Source: Kalmanozyma brasiliensis GHG001 (taxonomy: Eukaryota; Basidiomycota; Ustilaginomycetes; Ustilaginales). From it: a stretch of 64,000 nt of DNA. The stretch is from positions 124,001-188,000 of the forward strand of contig NW_015961964.1 in NCBI RefSeq assembly GCF_000497045.1, written 5' to 3'. The notes beneath the pieces are model-generated. The model was not told the DNA's origin and ran no database searches. It saw nothing but the letters and a program-made list of their open reading frames with translations. This document shows positions 43,553 through 51,100 of the stretch, piece after piece. Made by a program: the position numbers and the translations under genes. Positions within the stretch are counted from its first letter, which is position 1. Every line of letters begins with the position of its first letter.

Positions 43553-44338
43553 TTATGCTTCGTCGTCGGTCATCTCCGGCTCGGAAGTTTCAGGCTTTGG
43601 AGTAAAGTAGCGAATCGAGATGGGTCTGTTGGGCTCGCCATGGAAGATCCTGAGAAGCAAACGGTAGAGATCACGGCCGAAGCGGATGATCTCTGGGTCG
43701 TATTTTGAGCAGACCTTGCAGTCGCGAAAGAAGAAAGCGTCGTCGCTGGGCGCCAGCATGATCGAGTGCTCTGCGTAGAGGTTCTGAACTGCGCGAATCA
43801 CCCGAAAGCGCTGTCTTAAGAAGTCGGGTGAGTGCTCGAGAATCTCTTCTGGACGCAAGACCGTGCAAATGTCACGACGAAGCAGCTCCGAGAGTGTCGA
43901 GATGTCGAAGCGCAGCGATTGGATGAGGATCTTGAGGGGTGGTCGTGGAAGCTTCTCCTTTCCGAGACGAGTGACAAGCTTGAAGCGCGAAAGAGGATCG
44001 CCTTGGAGCGGCATGACGTGGTAGTCGAGCAGGCAGAAGATATCGACGATCCCATAGTGGTGGTCCTCGTAGACCAAGGCATTGGGACTGTCACGCGATC
44101 GATTCGTGGATCGCTTGAGCTTGTTGAGGGTGCGCAGGGTTGCATTGGAGCTCTTGAGGAACGTGTTGCCTTGCAGGACCCTAGCAAAGACGCTTCCAGC
44201 GCAATGGGCATGAGTGACCTCGTCCGGAGTGGCGATGGAGGGATCGAGTCGTTCGCCCTCTCGAACGATGGTCTTTAGCCTAAGATTGAGATGGGAAGCG
44301 GGGACAAGTTGTGTCTTGGGGTGATGCTGACAGTACAT
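43553..44338 (-). CDS. Hypothetical protein, soluble, unrecognised
   Basis: 261 aa from ATG 44336-44338. The frame remains open 38 codons further upstream but without an ATG, so a short upstream exon is possible. Cysteines occur as MYCQHH at the start and CKVCSKY near residue 213. Notable blocks are ALVYEDHHYGIVDIFCLLDYHVMPLQGDPLSRFKL and KLPRPPLKILIQSLRFDISTLSELLRRDICTV. An acidic C-terminus ends in PEMTDDEA. The composition is protein-like throughout, with no signal peptide or membrane helix. I do not recognise a family. Confidence 0.6.
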   Translation of the reverse strand: MYCQHHPKTQLVPASHLNLRLKTIVREGERLDPSIATPDEVTHAHCAGSVFARVLQGNTFLKSSNATLRTLNKLKRSTNRSRDSPNALVYEDHHYGIVDIFCLLDYHVMPLQGDPLSRFKLVTRLGKEKLPRPPLKILIQSLRFDISTLSELLRRDICTVLRPEEILEHSPDFLRQRFRVIRAVQNLYAEHSIMLAPSDDAFFFRDCKVCSKYDPEIIRFGRDLYRLLLRIFHGEPNRPISIRYFTPKPETSEPEMTDDEA

Positions 44339-45133
44339 CGTGCCGGATCGCTTGTCCTTATGGTAGCGGAATGCTGGGAGAGCCAAAGGAGGGTGATGGC
44401 GAGGAGGAATCTTTTCAAGCAATCTCGAAGAATGTACCTTTAGCCAAAAGGCTCAAGCGTGTTGCGGTGGGCTGAGCTCATTTGCTTTGCCCTTTGTTCC
44501 TCTGCGCACGGTTGCAAAAGAGTCAGACTGTCTTGGCTGTGAGCAGTCGACTGCCGCTTGGGCCTCTCCGTCCATCAAGTCCAAGAGAGCTGCGCAGCAA
44601 AGATTCAGCGGACCGCCTTGGCCATCAGTCAAGGCTCAAGCGGGGATGCCTTGCTTTGACACAGCAGACGGAACACCGGAGATGGCCATCACTCAATGTG
44701 ATCACTCTGTGTGAAAGCAAAACGGCAACCTGGCTATGCTTTCTTCTGAACCATTCTGCTGTCGTCACCGAAAGACGATGCGAAGCGACTGACTTGACGA
44801 GACTCTCTGCTGTGACTGCTACGCCTACACGGCTAACTCTGCTGCTCTGCTCAGCTCAGCTCTGCTCTGCTGAGCTCAGGTCAAAGTCGTTGGCCAACCT
44901 CCACCATCAGCGCGCTCAGCAGCCAGAGAAAAAAGATGCTGCGCTGTGCTGCCTTGTCCGAATTCCGTCTTTTGGATTCGAGTCTTCTCAAAAGTCTCAC
45001 TTTTTTGGAAGAGCCTTTGCGGCAGTCGACATCGACATCGAATCAACACTCTCATCTGCTCGGTCGCTCAGCCTCCTCGAGAGCAGACAGCTTTGGCCCA
45101 GGGAACTGTGGACGCGAGCAAGGCTACAGACGC
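44339..45133. promoter_or_regulatory. Divergent promoter region of RNase Z
   Basis: About 800 bp. The RNase Z frame is open from an ATG at 44936, with a good context (AAAGATGC), giving 66 more residues with several acidic positions. A short CTCAGCT/GCTCTG repeat lies at 44838-44880. No other gene is supported. Confidence 0.4.
44838..44880. repeat. Short imperfect repeat of GCTCTGCTCAGCT
   Basis: Five overlapping CTCTGCT/CTCAGCT units, including the inverted pair GCTCAGCTC and GAGCTCAG, about 60-100 nt ahead of the first possible RNase Z start. It could fold in the leader; no function is claimed. Confidence 0.6.
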
Positions 45134-48100
45134 ATGTGGTGGTGGTCCCCCTCGACCACCTGCTCGACATCTCGCATACTTCGACGTCCACCCGTCAACG
45201 GCCTCACATTCTCCCTACACACTTTCAGCACGTCTGTCAGCTCCCTGAGCTCTCAGCAGCAGCGCCAATACCTACCACAAAGAAGCATGCTCGCCGACCT
45301 TCGCGTGCTTCACGTGCCATCCTCCGACACCAATGTGCTGCCTCCCGTCATCCTCCAGCTTGGCGCCGACCGATACCTATTCAATGTCGGCGAAGGCACC
45401 TCGCGCTCTTCCACCCAGCGCAAGGCCAATCTCAGCCGCGTCACCAATATTTTCGTCTCTCGCGTAGGATGGGAGGCCATCGGTGGTCTACCTGGCGTCC
45501 TCATGTCCATGGCAGATGGCCAGCGTGCCAGCGAGTCGCTACACGGACCCCAAGGTCTTCGCTATGCCCTCGCCACCATGCGCACCTACGCAAAGCGTGA
45601 CATAATGAAGCTCAACATCAGCGAGATCCCAGCACAAGCAGGTACTTCCAGCGCCGGTACTGGGATCACAGCATCACCCGTTTTCACCGACGACAACCTC
45701 GCCATCTACGCCGTGCCCCTGCTTCCTTCCAGCGCCGCGAAGCGAGCGTCCAAGAGGCCCAAGCTTGATGACAATCGCGCTGCAGGCCCCTCAGCAACCA
45801 CACTCGAGAAAGTGGATCAGCTATGGCGGAAGCCTCATTTCAACCCGTCTGGCCTACAGGCCGAAGACGCACAAGCTTGGATCCATCTCGTCTCGGGTAG
45901 CATTTTCAACGACTCGCTACTACGTAGACGACAACAGCAGGCTGTAGAGGCGACCTCGACACAGCAACCAAGCGTCTCAATCAACGACGTCGAGATGGAA
46001 GATGCCGACCGTGCACCAGCTCCGACGCAACTACACGCTCGAGGGACTTCACCTTGGCGTCCACCACTGTCGCCTGCCTTCGTCACACGACTGCTACCAC
46101 GGCCGCACTCGGACACACGCAACCTATCGTCAGAGCGGAGCGACCCAGCAGAAGGCGGTCAAGCTCCCGTTCTAGCGTTCATCTGCGAAGCGCATCCACA
46201 GCGAGGCAAGTTTGACCCCGTCAAAGCGACAGCCGCCGGTGTTCCGCCAGGTCCTCTGTTCGCGGCCTTGACAAGGGGAGAAGACGTCACGCTCAAGCGT
46301 CCGAAGGCCTGGTCAAGTATGCCAGTAGAAGAGAAGAAGAGGTGGTCGCAGAGCCAGAGAGGAGGTCAGCGCGGTGGTCCAGCTGGCAGCAAACCAAGGC
46401 CAAATGGAAAGGCAAAGGGTGGGAGCGCGACAGACTCGCCACCAGCTGCATGGAACGATGTCGAGGAAGTACACGTGAGGTCCACCGACGTCATGGGCCC
46501 TTCGCGTGCTGGTGCGGTCGTGCTGCACGTCTACCTGCCATCAACCGACTACATTGACGATCTGCTCAGCGAGAGAGCTGCGTCCACCTTCTTGCCGTAT
46601 ACTGCCGGAGCCAACCAAGGACTCAGCAGAGAGCAGTCTCGAACACCCCAAGCTATCGTCCACGCAGTGCCGACTGGCGTTCTCAAGGATGCGCGCTACC
46701 AATCATGGATGCGTACCTTCGGGCCCGACTGTCACCACATCGTCGCTAACCATGACGTCTGCGCTAACAAGCTCATGTACCCTTCGAGCGCGACGATTCC
46801 GCTTCGACTTTCCAAGCTCGACGAGGTCATGTTCAAGGTGCCGCAGTATCAGCTTACCCCGAGGTCGCCTCTCTCAGCATTGTCATCGGCAACGACCAAC
46901 GGCAAGACAGAAGAGGTTGGCTTCCCACTCAAGCTCGGTGCAGCAGAGGCGGATCAGGTCATTCCGCTGCAGCCTCGGGGCGGACCCAAACGCTACCACT
47001 CAGGCGCGCCGGACTTCGACTTCCCAGTGAACTCCGAAGAGGCCGACAAGCTTGCTGCGTTCGATTTCGACACGGTTGAGGAGACCGAGCAGCAAGTGCA
47101 GCAGCTGGTCAAAGCCAAGGCCAAGAACAACTCCAAGAACGGTGTGACTGCATCGTCGGCTCCAGGGACAGACGAACTCGGCGCTGTGCGCAACACTCGT
47201 CTCAGAGAAGCACGCAAGCAGGCGTGGCAAGACTACCTCGACGTGGTCAAGCGAATCAAGTTCGACACTGCGCCTCTATCGTCGGACGTCGCTCCAGAGA
47301 AAGATATCTTGGTGACGACGTTGGGCACGGGCTCAGCAGCGCCGAGCAAGTATCGCAACGTCATCTCCACCCTGATCCAGACGCCGTCCTCGGGCACCAT
47401 CCTGCTGGATGCCGGCGAATCGACCTATGGCTTGCTACGCCGCAAGTTCGGTTGTCGACGCGATGGTACCGCTGCTGAGAGCGGTGCATTGGTACCACAG
47501 GACATCGACGACATCCTCCGCGAGATGCGCGTGCTATTCATCAGCCACATCCACGCGGATCATCACATCGGCCTCATCCGCATCCTGCTCGAGCGACGGA
47601 AGCTCCAGCCTCGACCCGAGCATCCACTCTACCTCGTAGGCACAGGCTTCGTGCATAACTACCTCGAGGAGTACGAGCACGTCGAGAAGCTCGGACTGGA
47701 CGAAGACGTCGTTCTCGTTCTCAACGAACATCTTGATCATCAGACCGGAGTAGACCCCACTCCACCTTCCGACGGCACCTCTGTCACCCCTCACACCAAC
47801 GGCATCAGTCGCGGCCAGCAGCAAGCACGGAGCGAGGACCTCGCCCACGTCTCCGCCATCAAGTCGCTCACTGGACTCTCTGCGATCCACACCGCACGTG
47901 TGGTGCACCGCGGCTCGCACTGCTATGGGCTGGTCCTGCGCCATCCCGATTGGTCCATCACCTACTCGGGCGACACGCGACCTGCACCGGAGCTCATCGC
48001 CGCCGGACGCGACTGCAGCTTGCTCATCCACGAAGCCACCTTGGAAGACGGTCAGCTGGACATGGCCATCGGCAAAGGCCACTCGACCTTCGGCGAGGCC

Positions 48101-48559
48101 ATCCGTGTCGGCCACGAGATGGGCGCACAGAACATCCTGCTGACGCACTTCTCGCAGCGATACCCGAAGATGGCGCGGTCGTCGCTCTTTGCGTTGCAAA
48201 AGCAAGGTCAAGGAAAGAATGTGCCGATCGCGCTGGCGTTTGACATGGTGACCTATCCGTTGAGCCGCTTTGGGAGGATCCAGGGGTACACGCCGGCGAT
48301 GGAGGCGCTGTTTGCGGCAGACACGGAGGGAGATGAGGACGGAACTGCGGCTGGCGTGGCCGATGGTGCCGATGAGAAGATTGCTGCGTCGGGCAAGACG
48401 GGGCAGGGAAAGCAAAGCAAGAAGCCAGGCCAGGGCGAAAGCAGCAAGTCGTCGGGTGCAGCCACCGTCGTAGCTGGCACGCTGGGCGCAGCCGCCGCCC
48501 TCGATGACGACAAAGCTGTCGAGGCAACGGAAGCGAATGGCGACAAGCGAGACAGTTAG
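45134..48559 (+). CDS. TRZ1: tRNA 3'-endonuclease RNase Z, long form (ELAC2/Trz1)
   Basis: 1141 aa from ATG 45134. The N-terminal degenerate beta-lactamase half begins MLADLRVLHVPSSDTNVLPP (ATG 45287) and includes LFNVGEGTSRSSTQRK and FVSRVGWEAIGGLPG. The C-terminal active half has VTTLGTGSAAPSKYRN, ILLDAGESTYG, the metal site SHIHADHHIG (His805, His807, Asp809, His810), the exosite region around NYLEEYEHVEKLG, YSGDTRP, HEATLEDG and LTHFSQRYPK. It removes 3' trailers from pre-tRNAs in nucleus and mitochondria. Start 45134 yields an acid-free presequence (WWWSPSTTCSTSRILRRPP) in a weak context, while 45287 has a strong context and no presequence, so dual targeting is plausible. ATG 44936 would add 66 residues. 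The Ala/Lys-rich tail ends at TAG 48557-48559, inside the next gene. Confidence 0.93.
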   Translation: MWWWSPSTTCSTSRILRRPPVNGLTFSLHTFSTSVSSLSSQQQRQYLPQRSMLADLRVLHVPSSDTNVLPPVILQLGADRYLFNVGEGTSRSSTQRKANLSRVTNIFVSRVGWEAIGGLPGVLMSMADGQRASESLHGPQGLRYALATMRTYAKRDIMKLNISEIPAQAGTSSAGTGITASPVFTDDNLAIYAVPLLPSSAAKRASKRPKLDDNRAAGPSATTLEKVDQLWRKPHFNPSGLQAEDAQAWIHLVSGSIFNDSLLRRRQQQAVEATSTQQPSVSINDVEMEDADRAPAPTQLHARGTSPWRPPLSPAFVTRLLPRPHSDTRNLSSERSDPAEGGQAPVLAFICEAHPQRGKFDPVKATAAGVPPGPLFAALTRGEDVTLKRPKAWSSMPVEEKKRWSQSQRGGQRGGPAGSKPRPNGKAKGGSATDSPPAAWNDVEEVHVRSTDVMGPSRAGAVVLHVYLPSTDYIDDLLSERAASTFLPYTAGANQGLSREQSRTPQAIVHAVPTGVLKDARYQSWMRTFGPDCHHIVANHDVCANKLMYPSSATIPLRLSKLDEVMFKVPQYQLTPRSPLSALSSATTNGKTEEVGFPLKLGAAEADQVIPLQPRGGPKRYHSGAPDFDFPVNSEEADKLAAFDFDTVEETEQQVQQLVKAKAKNNSKNGVTASSAPGTDELGAVRNTRLREARKQAWQDYLDVVKRIKFDTAPLSSDVAPEKDILVTTLGTGSAAPSKYRNVISTLIQTPSSGTILLDAGESTYGLLRRKFGCRRDGTAAESGALVPQDIDDILREMRVLFISHIHADHHIGLIRILLERRKLQPRPEHPLYLVGTGFVHNYLEEYEHVEKLGLDEDVVLVLNEHLDHQTGVDPTPPSDGTSVTPHTNGISRGQQQARSEDLAHVSAIKSLTGLSAIHTARVVHRGSHCYGLVLRHPDWSITYSGDTRPAPELIAAGRDCSLLIHEATLEDGQLDMAIGKGHSTFGEAIRVGHEMGAQNILLTHFSQRYPKMARSSLFALQKQGQGKNVPIALAFDMVTYPLSRFGRIQGYTPAMEALFAADTEGDEDGTAAGVADGADEKIAASGKTGQGKQSKKPGQGESSKSSGAATVVAGTLGAAAALDDDKAVEATEANGDKRDS

Positions 48560-49051
48560 TATCCCTTTCTGCTCACTCTGTAGATCTAGCCCTGCACGAC
48601 CGCAATACTGACTGCATCCCATCTCCTGTCTCATCACGTCCTCACAGCAAAGCCTCTCTTTGAGCCGAGCGTCACACTCGAACGCTACACACGCAAAGGC
48701 CTCAAACCCTCGGACTGGCGCTATCTGGGTCTGCACCTCTCCCCCTCACCCTCGACCGCGACACTGCCCGTGATCTTGCCGGCATACATCCTGTCGCTGG
48801 TGCACACCGCCCAGACTGCCACGATGGGCGTCCTCGGCGGCGCATACAACGTCGACATCCTCTCCACCCACGTCTCCGCTTCAGACGGGCGCAGCTGGCA
48901 CGCTGTCCTCCGCGTAGACGCCAGACACGGACAAGACCTGAGTTCGTCGCTCAGCATGCTCCCCGCGCCCGAGGTGGGCGGCGTCCGACTGCGAATGCGC
49001 GTCGTCGGCCCAACCACCTCCATCCAGACCGTGCAAAGTCTGCTCCTCTAG
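48537..49051 (+). CDS. Pop8-like subunit of RNase P/MRP (two exons)
   Basis: Predicted 141 aa. Exon 1 is 48537-48558 (MATSETV plus one base), intron 48559-48647 (GTATCC donor, branch CTGAC at 48608-48612, CACAG acceptor, 89 nt), exon 2 48648-49051; phases fit exactly. The frame of exon 2 has no ATG between an in-frame stop at 48587 and its conserved start, so an upstream exon is required. The protein runs LKPSDWRYLGLHLS (WxYxxL entry motif), YILSLVHTAQTATMGVLGGAYNVDIL, WHAVLRVDARHGQDLSSSLSML and a final VRLRMRVVGPT. This matches the layout of Pop8 in yeast, a small protein of the RNase P and MRP ribonucleoproteins. The assignment rests on motif order only. Exon 1 lies in a different frame inside the end of RNase Z. 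Confidence 0.65.
48559..48647 (+). other. Predicted intron of the Pop8-like gene, beginning on the last base of the RNase Z stop codon
   Basis: GT at 48559-48560 and AG at 48646-48647. The G of the RNase Z stop TAG (48557-48559) is the first intron base. If an RNase Z transcript were spliced here, its stop would be lost and replaced by a short tail (YKASL, then TGA at 48661). Confidence 0.6.
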
Positions 49052-49144: not shown

Positions 49145-50320
49145 TCAAAGCTGGGTACCAAACACGTAATCCCACACCTTGCTCGTCACCCCGAATCCGA
49201 GCTCAAAGTTCTTGTAATGGTGTTCGAGATGGTACTGCTTCATCTCCTTCATGTACTGGGGCAGCTTGGTGTGATGCAGCGCATAGTGCATGCAGTCGTA
49301 GACGACGTACATGCTGAAGGCGCCGGAGATGATGCCGTTTGCGACGGCGTGTGGGAAGATGGTGTGTGCGAGCTGGGTGAATGGGTAGCTGAGGAGGAAG
49401 AAGAGCAGCGGGGGCATGACGAGACGGAGTCGATCCATGGGGAGGTAGTGGTGTACGCCGTGGAGGAGGAAGTGGAGGGTCAAGAACATGGGTTTGTCGG
49501 GGAGGATGTTGTCGATGTGGAAGAGGAAGCGGTGGATCGAGTATTCAAGGAGCGTCCAGATGACCACGCCAATCGCCCAGCAGATGGCCGTCTGCGTCAG
49601 CGCCACCGACCACACACCCGTATCGAACTGGGTGGGCTTCGACGCCGCCTCGTACCAGTTGGACGCGTTGAGCGGGGTCTTTGCCAGGTTGGACGCAAAC
49701 TGCGTCGCAGAGCGGAAGAAGATGATGCTGGCAATGGGCAACCACACCATGGGCACCACGTACCACGGCGTTCGAGTAAACATCTCGAGGTAGTCCTGGT
49801 TGAAGAAGCGGGCGGGGTGCTTGAGGTGGCGTGGCGAATGCACCTGCTCGAGGTAGAATTCTTTGGAGAAGTTGGCGCTAAGCATCTGGGGCATGAGTGG
49901 CTTGTTGAGGTCGAGGAACTTGTTCTGCTTGTAATCGGAAGATTGGTCGGTCTCGTCGGGGTGGAAGTCGTCGGTGATGACGATCGAGTCGTCTTTGCCC
50001 GAGTAGCCCCCCTTGGCAGCGCGTTCCTTGAGCGCTTCCTTCTCCGCGTCGGTGGTAGGCAAGCGGCCGATGATGTGTTCGTCGAGCAGTTCGTACGCTG
50101 AGTCGGAGTGAGAGTGCTCGATGGGATCGTCCATGATCTCACCCATATCCTTGCCGGCGTAGCGGAGGATAAGGTCGTCTCCACCCGGGTGATCCTCGAC
50201 AAAGTCGGTGACATCGTAGACCTTGCCGCGGTGGATGACCCAGCAATCAGAGGCGGTCTTGTGCCTGGCAACGTCGTCCGCCGAGAAGAGCTGCATCTTG
50301 GATGATGTTGCTGCCGCCAT
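49145..50320 (-). CDS. SCS7: Sphingolipid fatty acid 2-hydroxylase with N-terminal cytochrome b5 domain
   Basis: 391 aa, ATG 50318-50320. The cytochrome b5 domain (about 9-87) has FVEDHPGGDDL (heme His44) and EHSHSD (second heme His, 69 or 71). The hydroxylase part has four membrane helices and the di-iron histidine set: EYSIHRFLFH, LHGVHHYLPMD, CMHYALHH and QYHLEHHYKNFELGFG. The length and order match yeast Scs7 and human FA2H, endoplasmic-reticulum enzymes that hydroxylate C2 of the very-long-chain fatty acid in ceramide. It converges with the Pop8-like gene (93 nt between stops) and is divergent from MMM1. Confidence 0.96.
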   Translation of the reverse strand: MAAATSSKMQLFSADDVARHKTASDCWVIHRGKVYDVTDFVEDHPGGDDLILRYAGKDMGEIMDDPIEHSHSDSAYELLDEHIIGRLPTTDAEKEALKERAAKGGYSGKDDSIVITDDFHPDETDQSSDYKQNKFLDLNKPLMPQMLSANFSKEFYLEQVHSPRHLKHPARFFNQDYLEMFTRTPWYVVPMVWLPIASIIFFRSATQFASNLAKTPLNASNWYEAASKPTQFDTGVWSVALTQTAICWAIGVVIWTLLEYSIHRFLFHIDNILPDKPMFLTLHFLLHGVHHYLPMDRLRLVMPPLLFFLLSYPFTQLAHTIFPHAVANGIISGAFSMYVVYDCMHYALHHTKLPQYMKEMKQYHLEHHYKNFELGFGVTSKVWDYVFGTQL

Positions 50321-51100
50321 TGTCGCTTGTAGAATAGTGATGGTGGGTGAACGAAGAGAAGGAGATGGACTCGCTTGTTAGCGAAAAGGATCAGCAAGGG
50401 TTCCGCATCGCCTAATTCGAGCTGCGCAGCAATTTGAGATTTTTGGGTTCGAGAGCGGCAGGCTGTGGCAAAATTTGAGAATTTCCAGGCTAAACAAGCA
50501 ACACACACACACGCTTCCACACCGCACAACGCGCCTTTCACTCGGACTGCTCGGCTGGCAAAGACCGAAATTCATTTCCACATGATTTCACAGCGCAACA
50601 TAAGCGCGAGTTCGGAGTTGACCGTCTGCTGACACTTTGAAGCATCGACTCGCAGCTGGCAGCGACTTCCATGTATATGTTCATCGATGAGTAACAAGCA
50701 GCATCCAGCGAGAACGTGCTTTGTCATGAACTGACGCTCGACGAAGAGTCTGACGCCGCTGGAGGTCGAAGCTTTCGGACCATTGACAGAGGAGTGGCGT
50801 AGGTGGCCCTGCCGGAGCCGCCAGCACGCCGCCAGGGCGAGGCCAGACTGTCGTATCGCGCTGGGAGATCTTTCGTACGAGATAGAACAAAACGCATCTC
50901 AAATTCTAGCATGGCAGATCGCCGATTCACTAACTGCTCCACCCGTCATCCGAGATTCTGTCACGAAGCCGCTTGTTGAACTCCCACAACCTTCTTGTGA
51001 TGCTCGTTACCAACCACTGCAGATCGAGAAAGCGAGGCCACACCGCCATGCGTAGGCCATAGCGACACATACTCCAGCCGTTTCGGCGCCCTCTTCTACG
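50321..51100. promoter_or_regulatory. Divergent promoter region between SCS7 and MMM1
   Basis: 780 bp. The leftward leader contains an ACAC repeat (about 50501-50512, read on the plus strand). A few short frames are open but none is protein-like. Both genes serve ER membranes, but co-regulation is not shown. Confidence 0.4.

What the first reader, a model, noticed from the sequence alone, without database searches (positions are those of the whole stretch)
48537..48661. RNase Z and a predicted RNase P/MRP subunit gene overlap by 23 nt, with an intron starting on the RNase Z stop codon
Seen: exon 1 of the downstream gene (48537-48558) lies in another frame inside the RNase Z coding end. Its GTATCC donor uses the G of the RNase Z TAG. 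Donor, CTGAC branch and CACAG acceptor, and the codon phases, all agree. Known: RNase Z trims tRNA 3' ends and RNase P the 5' ends. Inference: the two tRNA-end enzymes may be expressed as one unit, with splicing deciding which reading frame ends where.
Basis: partly seen in the sequence, partly recalled or inferred. Interest (0 to 1): 0.82.

Follow-up and report, generated by a model that had tools for sequence, protein, structure and literature searches.

The report
tRNA-end enzyme fused to RNase P subunit
In this smut-like yeast, and apparently in most of its fungal group, the enzyme that trims tRNA 3' ends is built as one protein with a small subunit of the RNA machine that trims tRNA 5' ends, joined here by splicing out a short intron that hides a stop codon.

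Summary
The listed sequence elements exist, but the gene model is wrong. With acceptor 48647 it removes a 93-nt intron holding the RNase Z TAG and joins RNase Z in frame to the Pop8-like exon: one 1223-aa RNase Z-Pop8 protein. The public K. brasiliensis RNase Z has exactly this junction. The C-terminal domain belongs to the Pop8/Rpp14/Pop5 fold group by family profile and predicted fold, though the window's own sequence stays below Pfam's cut-off. It ends 22 of 27 named Ustilaginomycotina RNase Z records and 0 of 51 other named fungal records among the 120 examined. Most likely function, inferred: the tail docks RNase Z on RNase P and RNase MRP through a flexible linker. Whether intron retention also makes RNase Z alone is untested. 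The paper listings seen describe no such fusion.

The parts
45287..48554 (+). coding exon 1 of the fusion: long-form RNase Z (tRNase Z-L) plus low-complexity linker, from ATG 45287
   Evidence: Pfam PF13691 and PF12706 over cut-off; HxHxDH, PxKxRN, HEAT and HST present; start MLADLRVLHV shared with relatives, 70.5% identity to the P. hubeiensis protein over the whole fusion
48555..48647 (+). 93-nt phase-1 intron (donor GTTAGT, branch CTGAC, acceptor CACAG) that contains the in-frame TAG
   Evidence: junction identical in the public K. brasiliensis RNase Z; donor matches 6 of 9 consensus positions; same phase inferred in other smuts from protein ends
48557..48559 (+). [not shown]
   Evidence: the 9 unnamed smut ORFs among P0013-P0031 end within 3 codons of the same place
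48648..49051 (+). coding exon 2: Pop8/Rpp14-type RNase P/MRP subunit domain, stop TAG 49049-49051
48608..48612 (+). branch-site motif CTGAC, branch A 48611
44936..45286 (+). open, in-frame N-terminal extension with ATGs at 44936 and 45134; possible mitochondrial presequence
   Evidence: relatives P0016 and P0017 are annotated with N-terminal extensions

Best explanation
The locus is one gene encoding a 1223-aa fusion of long-form RNase Z with a C-terminal Pop8-type subunit of RNase P/MRP. Shown by sequence: splicing from 48555 to 48648 removes the TAG and keeps the frame; the public protein has this junction; the same architecture recurs in Ustilaginomycotina records, apparently also as one uninterrupted ORF; in a modelled relative the two folded parts are joined by a linker predicted to be disordered. 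Inferred: the Pop8 domain takes Pop8's place beside Pop5 and Rpp1 in RNase P and RNase MRP, so that each particle carries an RNase Z on a flexible arm and tRNA 5' and 3' ends can be cut by one assembly. My confidence is about 0.95 for the fusion, 0.9 for a Pop8/Rpp14-type domain and 0.6 for docking on RNase P/MRP.
Against: No RNA or protein data were available. The window's own domain scores 15.1 bits against PF20976's cut-off of 27.2. Of 9 proteins scanned one passes that cut-off, five are below it and three (P0020, P0058, P0086) show no Pop8 hit at E<=1; of 7 one passes and six are below. Foldseek's two top rows for the domain are unrelated amidases. Five of 27 named Ustilaginomycotina models lack the domain; one of them (P0033) stops inside its first strand. 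RNase P RNA was not found in the genome with RF00009 (no eukaryote among that call's controls, so inconclusive). V5EX16 also skips 294 codons of open RNase Z frame, so that annotation is not flawless. A review treats Rpp14 as absent from yeast, with Pop8 only occupying a similar site (PMC8509007, passages).
Confidence: 0.85

Rival explanations
1. Two isoforms by regulated intron retention: the spliced message makes RNase Z-Pop8, the retained one makes RNase Z alone, ending ...KRDS*. The stop placed on the donor sets the ratio of RNase P/MRP-bound to free (for instance mitochondrial) RNase Z. This would be an addition to the fusion, not an alternative to it.
For: The TAG sits at intron positions +3 to +5 and the intron length is a multiple of 3. 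The 9 unnamed smut RNase Z ORFs among P0013-P0031, and this gene, stop within 3 codons of the inferred donor; in 7 of the 9 the last residue (S or R) directly abuts it. Retention is the commonest alternative splicing in U. maydis, 114 of 193 events (PMC2219887, passages). U. maydis GAPDH gains a C-terminal extension by alternative splicing (PMC3798809, passages). The donor can pair with the branch region.
Confidence: 0.3
2. Two overlapping genes: a separate 141-aa Pop8 starting at ATG 48537 with donor 48559.
For: All elements exist. Fungal isoforms whose introns differ by 4 nt are known (Yarrowia Mdh; PMC3798809, passage).
Against: Weak donor, 3 of 9; chance-level phase agreement; start impossible in 11 of 19 smut tails; no named standalone protein among the 12 hits of the small protein or the 14 of the domain profile, both searches being limited in reach; the public model of this species and of nine other named smut records is fused.
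Confidence: 0.03
3. The Pop8-like domain is a co-opted accessory RNA- or protein-binding tail of RNase Z and no longer an RNase P/MRP subunit.
For: The sequence is very divergent from Pop8. RNase P RNA was not detected, so the holoenzyme is unproven here. RRM-type folds appear lower in the structural list.
Against: A PF01900 (Pop5-type) gene, POP1 and p30 are encoded, and no other Pop8-like sequence was found in the genome by a protein query (one search is uninformative because its controls were silent too).
Confidence: 0.25
4. Gene-model artefact: neighbouring genes merged by annotation pipelines.
For: Public models are partly in silico; V5EX16 has a doubtful internal gap.
Against: Unnamed metagenome records (for example P0044, P0052, P0055, P0062, P0075, P0083) hold both domains in one protein; their source also gives the smut ORFs that stop at the intron, so it seems to call genes without introns (inference). 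The same order recurs in records of three classes.
Confidence: 0.04

Closest known systems
[not shown]
   Same: RNase Z body, start and motifs; fold of a relative matches ELAC2 and Trz1 over about model residues 1-730
   Different: The match to both solved proteins ends at the linker; the Pop8 domain is extra
Yeast Pop8 and human Rpp14, subunits of RNase P/MRP
   Same: Best two profile hits among PDB sequences; fold group
   Different: Those are separate small proteins; here the domain is the C-terminus of RNase Z. One review does not count Pop8 and Rpp14 as homologs of each other (PMC8509007, passages)
RPP14/HTD2 bicistronic mRNA of humans (PMC4705651 and PMC8509007, passages)
   Same: An Rpp14-type subunit expressed from one message with another protein
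   Different: There two separate proteins with unrelated tasks; here one polypeptide with two tRNA-end functions
Human mitochondrial RNase Z complex (PDB titles; a TRMT10C-SDR5C1 platform shared with mitochondrial RNase P is recalled)
   Same: 5' and 3' tRNA processing brought together on one assembly
   Different: Non-covalent and with protein-only RNase P; here covalent and tied to a subunit of RNA-based RNase P
U. maydis GAPDH C-terminal isoform by alternative splicing (PMC3798809, passages)
   Same: In a smut, splicing decides whether a C-terminal module is added
   Different: There a peroxisomal isoform, here a whole RNP subunit domain; alternative use is not shown here

Membership tests
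Long-form RNase Z (tRNase Z-L) | N-terminal tRNase Z domain (PF13691) and C-terminal metallo-beta-lactamase domain (PF12706) | tested here: met
   49.3 and 45.9 bits, both over the cut-off of 27
Long-form RNase Z (tRNase Z-L) | HxHxDH metal motif (recalled); PxKxRN, HEAT and HST loops (named in PMC2942849, passage) | tested here: met
   HIHADH 754, PSKYRN 686, HEAT 915, HST 932 in the 1223-aa protein (the other three strings of that call were taken from this protein and test nothing)
Long-form RNase Z (tRNase Z-L) | cleaves pre-tRNA 3' trailers | not testable with these tools
   needs an enzyme assay
Pop8/Rpp14-type subunits of RNase P/MRP | scores over the curated cut-off of PF20976 | tested here: not met
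   window sequence 15.1 of 27.2 bits; relatives P0053 (38.8) and P0052 (34.8) pass, other relatives scanned there do not
Pop8/Rpp14-type subunits of RNase P/MRP | family profile recognises known Pop8/Rpp14 chains | tested here: met
   6ahr_H E 2.1e-4, 6agb_H E 7.8e-3, the two best of 5 hits
Pop8/Rpp14-type subunits of RNase P/MRP | Pop5/Pop8-type alpha-beta fold | tested here: met
   [not shown]
Pop8/Rpp14-type subunits of RNase P/MRP | present in RNase P and RNase MRP particles | not testable with these tools
   needs purification
   possible in 8 of 19, impossible in 11 of 19 (from protein sequences)

The most novel reading that the evidence does not exclude
A whole fungal subphylum has made its tRNA 3'-end nuclease a built-in arm of RNase P and RNase MRP. 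In smuts an intron whose donor overlaps a conserved stop works as a switch between particle-bound RNase Z (spliced, fused to Pop8) and free RNase Z (retained), coupling tRNA 5' and 3' processing, and possibly Pop8 supply for rRNA processing, to splicing state.
Probability: 0.28. Interest if true: 0.82.

Novelty: new variant of a known kind. Interest (0 to 1): 0.66.

Why it matters
Whether RNase P and RNase Z act in one coupled assembly or by diffusion is hard to test where the enzymes are separate proteins. A natural covalent link between RNase Z and an RNase P/MRP subunit, seen in records of three classes of Ustilaginomycotina including the human skin yeast Malassezia, makes the coupling directly testable by pull-down. 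It also predicts that each RNase P and RNase MRP particle carries an RNase Z. For annotation, it offers a reason why no named standalone Pop8 turned up in these searches and corrects an apparent overlapping-gene call.

Tried and rejected
Overlapping-gene model: rejected. The open frame upstream of the acceptor has no ATG before the conserved domain, so exon 2 needs an upstream exon; the RNase Z frame supplies it. Searching the window's 141-aa product alone found only 12 unnamed small ORFs, because candidates are limited by length; the fusion appeared only when RNase Z itself was searched.

Literature: searches (1 paper; 20 of 331 listed; 0; 9; 9; 1; 15 of 603 listed) showed no title or abstract opening that describes an RNase Z-Pop8 fusion; most listed papers were not opened, and the library holds open-licence papers only. 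Zhao et al. 2010 (PMC2942849; passages) surveyed 84 fungal genomes and used a 1109-aa M. globosa protein; the words Pop8, Rpp14, Ustilago and smut do not occur in its main text; supplements not seen.

Full report
What is in the window. The window lies in a 17.3-Mb, 26-contig assembly. The searched C-terminal part of RNase Z matches the Kalmanozyma brasiliensis GHG001 protein at 100% (taxonomy), so the genome is that species or very near it.

In 10000 codon-shuffled RNase Z tails an open, in-phase ATG before 48559 occurs in 5442, and within 22 nt in 1249. At the matching place, an ATG in that frame is possible in 8 of 19 smut sequences, this species included, and impossible in 11. A database search with the small protein gave 12 hits and one with the domain profile 14 (10 of them shared), none with a source name; both searches are limited by length and shared words.

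Independent evidence that the fusion is real. Nine unnamed RNase Z ORFs from smut relatives (P0019, P0021-P0023, P0025-P0028, P0030; all the unnamed ones among P0013-P0031) end within three codons of the inferred donor, as expected of gene callers blind to introns (the blindness is my inference). By contrast, unnamed records that resemble named Malassezia proteins, such as P0041, P0044, P0047, P0052, P0053, P0062 and P0075, hold RNase Z and the Pop8-like domain in one protein.

Distribution. A profile built on 21 smut domains (10 of them from listed RNase Z proteins) was run on all 120 RNase Z proteins listed (the best 120 of 2237). In this first round it found 24 proteins outside its training set at domain E<0.01 and none of the 51 other named fungi even at E<1. 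After adding those hits, the domain is present at E<1e-10 in 36 of 120 (34 of which were seeds of that second profile): 22 of 27 named Ustilaginomycotina records (some species twice), 0 of 51 other named fungal records, 14 of 42 unnamed. The sorting of names into groups is mine, from the printed names and general knowledge; Exobasidium, Malassezia and Kalmanozyma were looked up and belong to three classes of that subphylum. The third class, Exobasidiomycetes, rests on one named record with the domain (P0086). The five named exceptions are P0033, P0036, P0040, P0079 and P0130; P0033 stops inside the first strand of the domain, and the others end without it. The domain lies at the C-terminal end, 0-32 residues from the last residue, 66-173 residues after the HFSQRY motif.

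How it most likely works. Shown or predicted: one reading frame, two folded units, a disordered linker. [quoted passage not shown] The genome encodes a PF01900 gene (Pop5-type by inference), POP1 and p30/Rpp1 and no second Pop8-like sequence that a protein query could find. Inferred: the tail occupies the Pop8 site and tethers RNase Z to RNase P and, since Pop8 is shared, to RNase MRP. Against: no physical data, and RNase P RNA was not found by RF00009, a test without a eukaryotic control in that call.

The intron stop. If the intron is kept, RNase Z ends ...KRDS* with its catalytic part intact. In 7 of the 9 unnamed relatives the last residue (S or R) directly abuts the donor, and in the other two (P0025, P0030) the stop follows two and one codons later, which implies a T at donor +3 in most of them instead of the usual purine (inference; usual consensus recalled). 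Retention is the main alternative splicing in U. maydis, 114 of 193 events (PMC2219887, passages), and a smut enzyme is known to gain a C-terminal extension by splicing (PMC3798809, passages). This makes a two-isoform switch plausible, but stops at intron starts also serve quality control (recalled), relatives share ancestry, and Malassezia-type records appear to lack this intron. I give it about 0.3.

Novelty. The literature listings (in some only 20 of 331 and 15 of 603 papers were listed) show no description of such a fusion. The 2010 survey of fungal tRNase Z (PMC2942849, passages) lists a 1109-aa M. globosa protein and does not mention Pop8 or Rpp14 in its main text. Database domain tables already carry both domains on some Malassezia proteins, so the architecture is visible but, as far as these searches show, not described. 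It is a new architecture of two known families: a new variant of a known kind.

Noticed in passing
44936-45286 (+): The RNase Z frame is open upstream of ATG 45287, with in-frame ATGs at 44936 and 45134; the peptide from 45134 (MWWWSPSTTCSTSRILRRPPVNGLTFSLHTFSTS...) looks like a mitochondrial presequence (by eye), and relatives P0016 and P0017 are annotated with N-terminal extensions. Possible dual nuclear/mitochondrial start.
   Followed up: partly
45749-46630 (+): The public protein V5EX16 skips residues 155-448 of the open RNase Z frame; the relative P0014 keeps the region. Probably a false intron in the public model.
   Followed up: partly
48553-48562 with 48606-48615 (+): The donor decamer CAGTTAGTAT can pair with the branch region ATACTGACTG over 10 positions; local fold z -2.56, wider fold z -0.60; 11 of 5000 shuffles, or 128 of 5000 with the branch motif kept, reach 10 pairs.
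   Followed up: partly
49145-50377 (-): Convergent neighbour with cytochrome b5 and fatty acid hydroxylase domains (PF00173, PF04116), its stop 93 bp from the end of the fusion gene: fatty acid 2-hydroxylase-like.
   Followed up: partly
43553-44452 (-): An ORF of 299 aa on the minus strand upstream of the fusion gene has no Pfam match at E<=0.01.
   Followed up: no
proteins P0042, P0045, P0033, P0050: These RNase Z records end, or change sequence, just after the first strand of the Pop8 domain (YVVLALY, YVVLSLY, YLSLRL, YLCLRL), which suggests another intron inside the Pop8 domain in other lineages.
   Followed up: no
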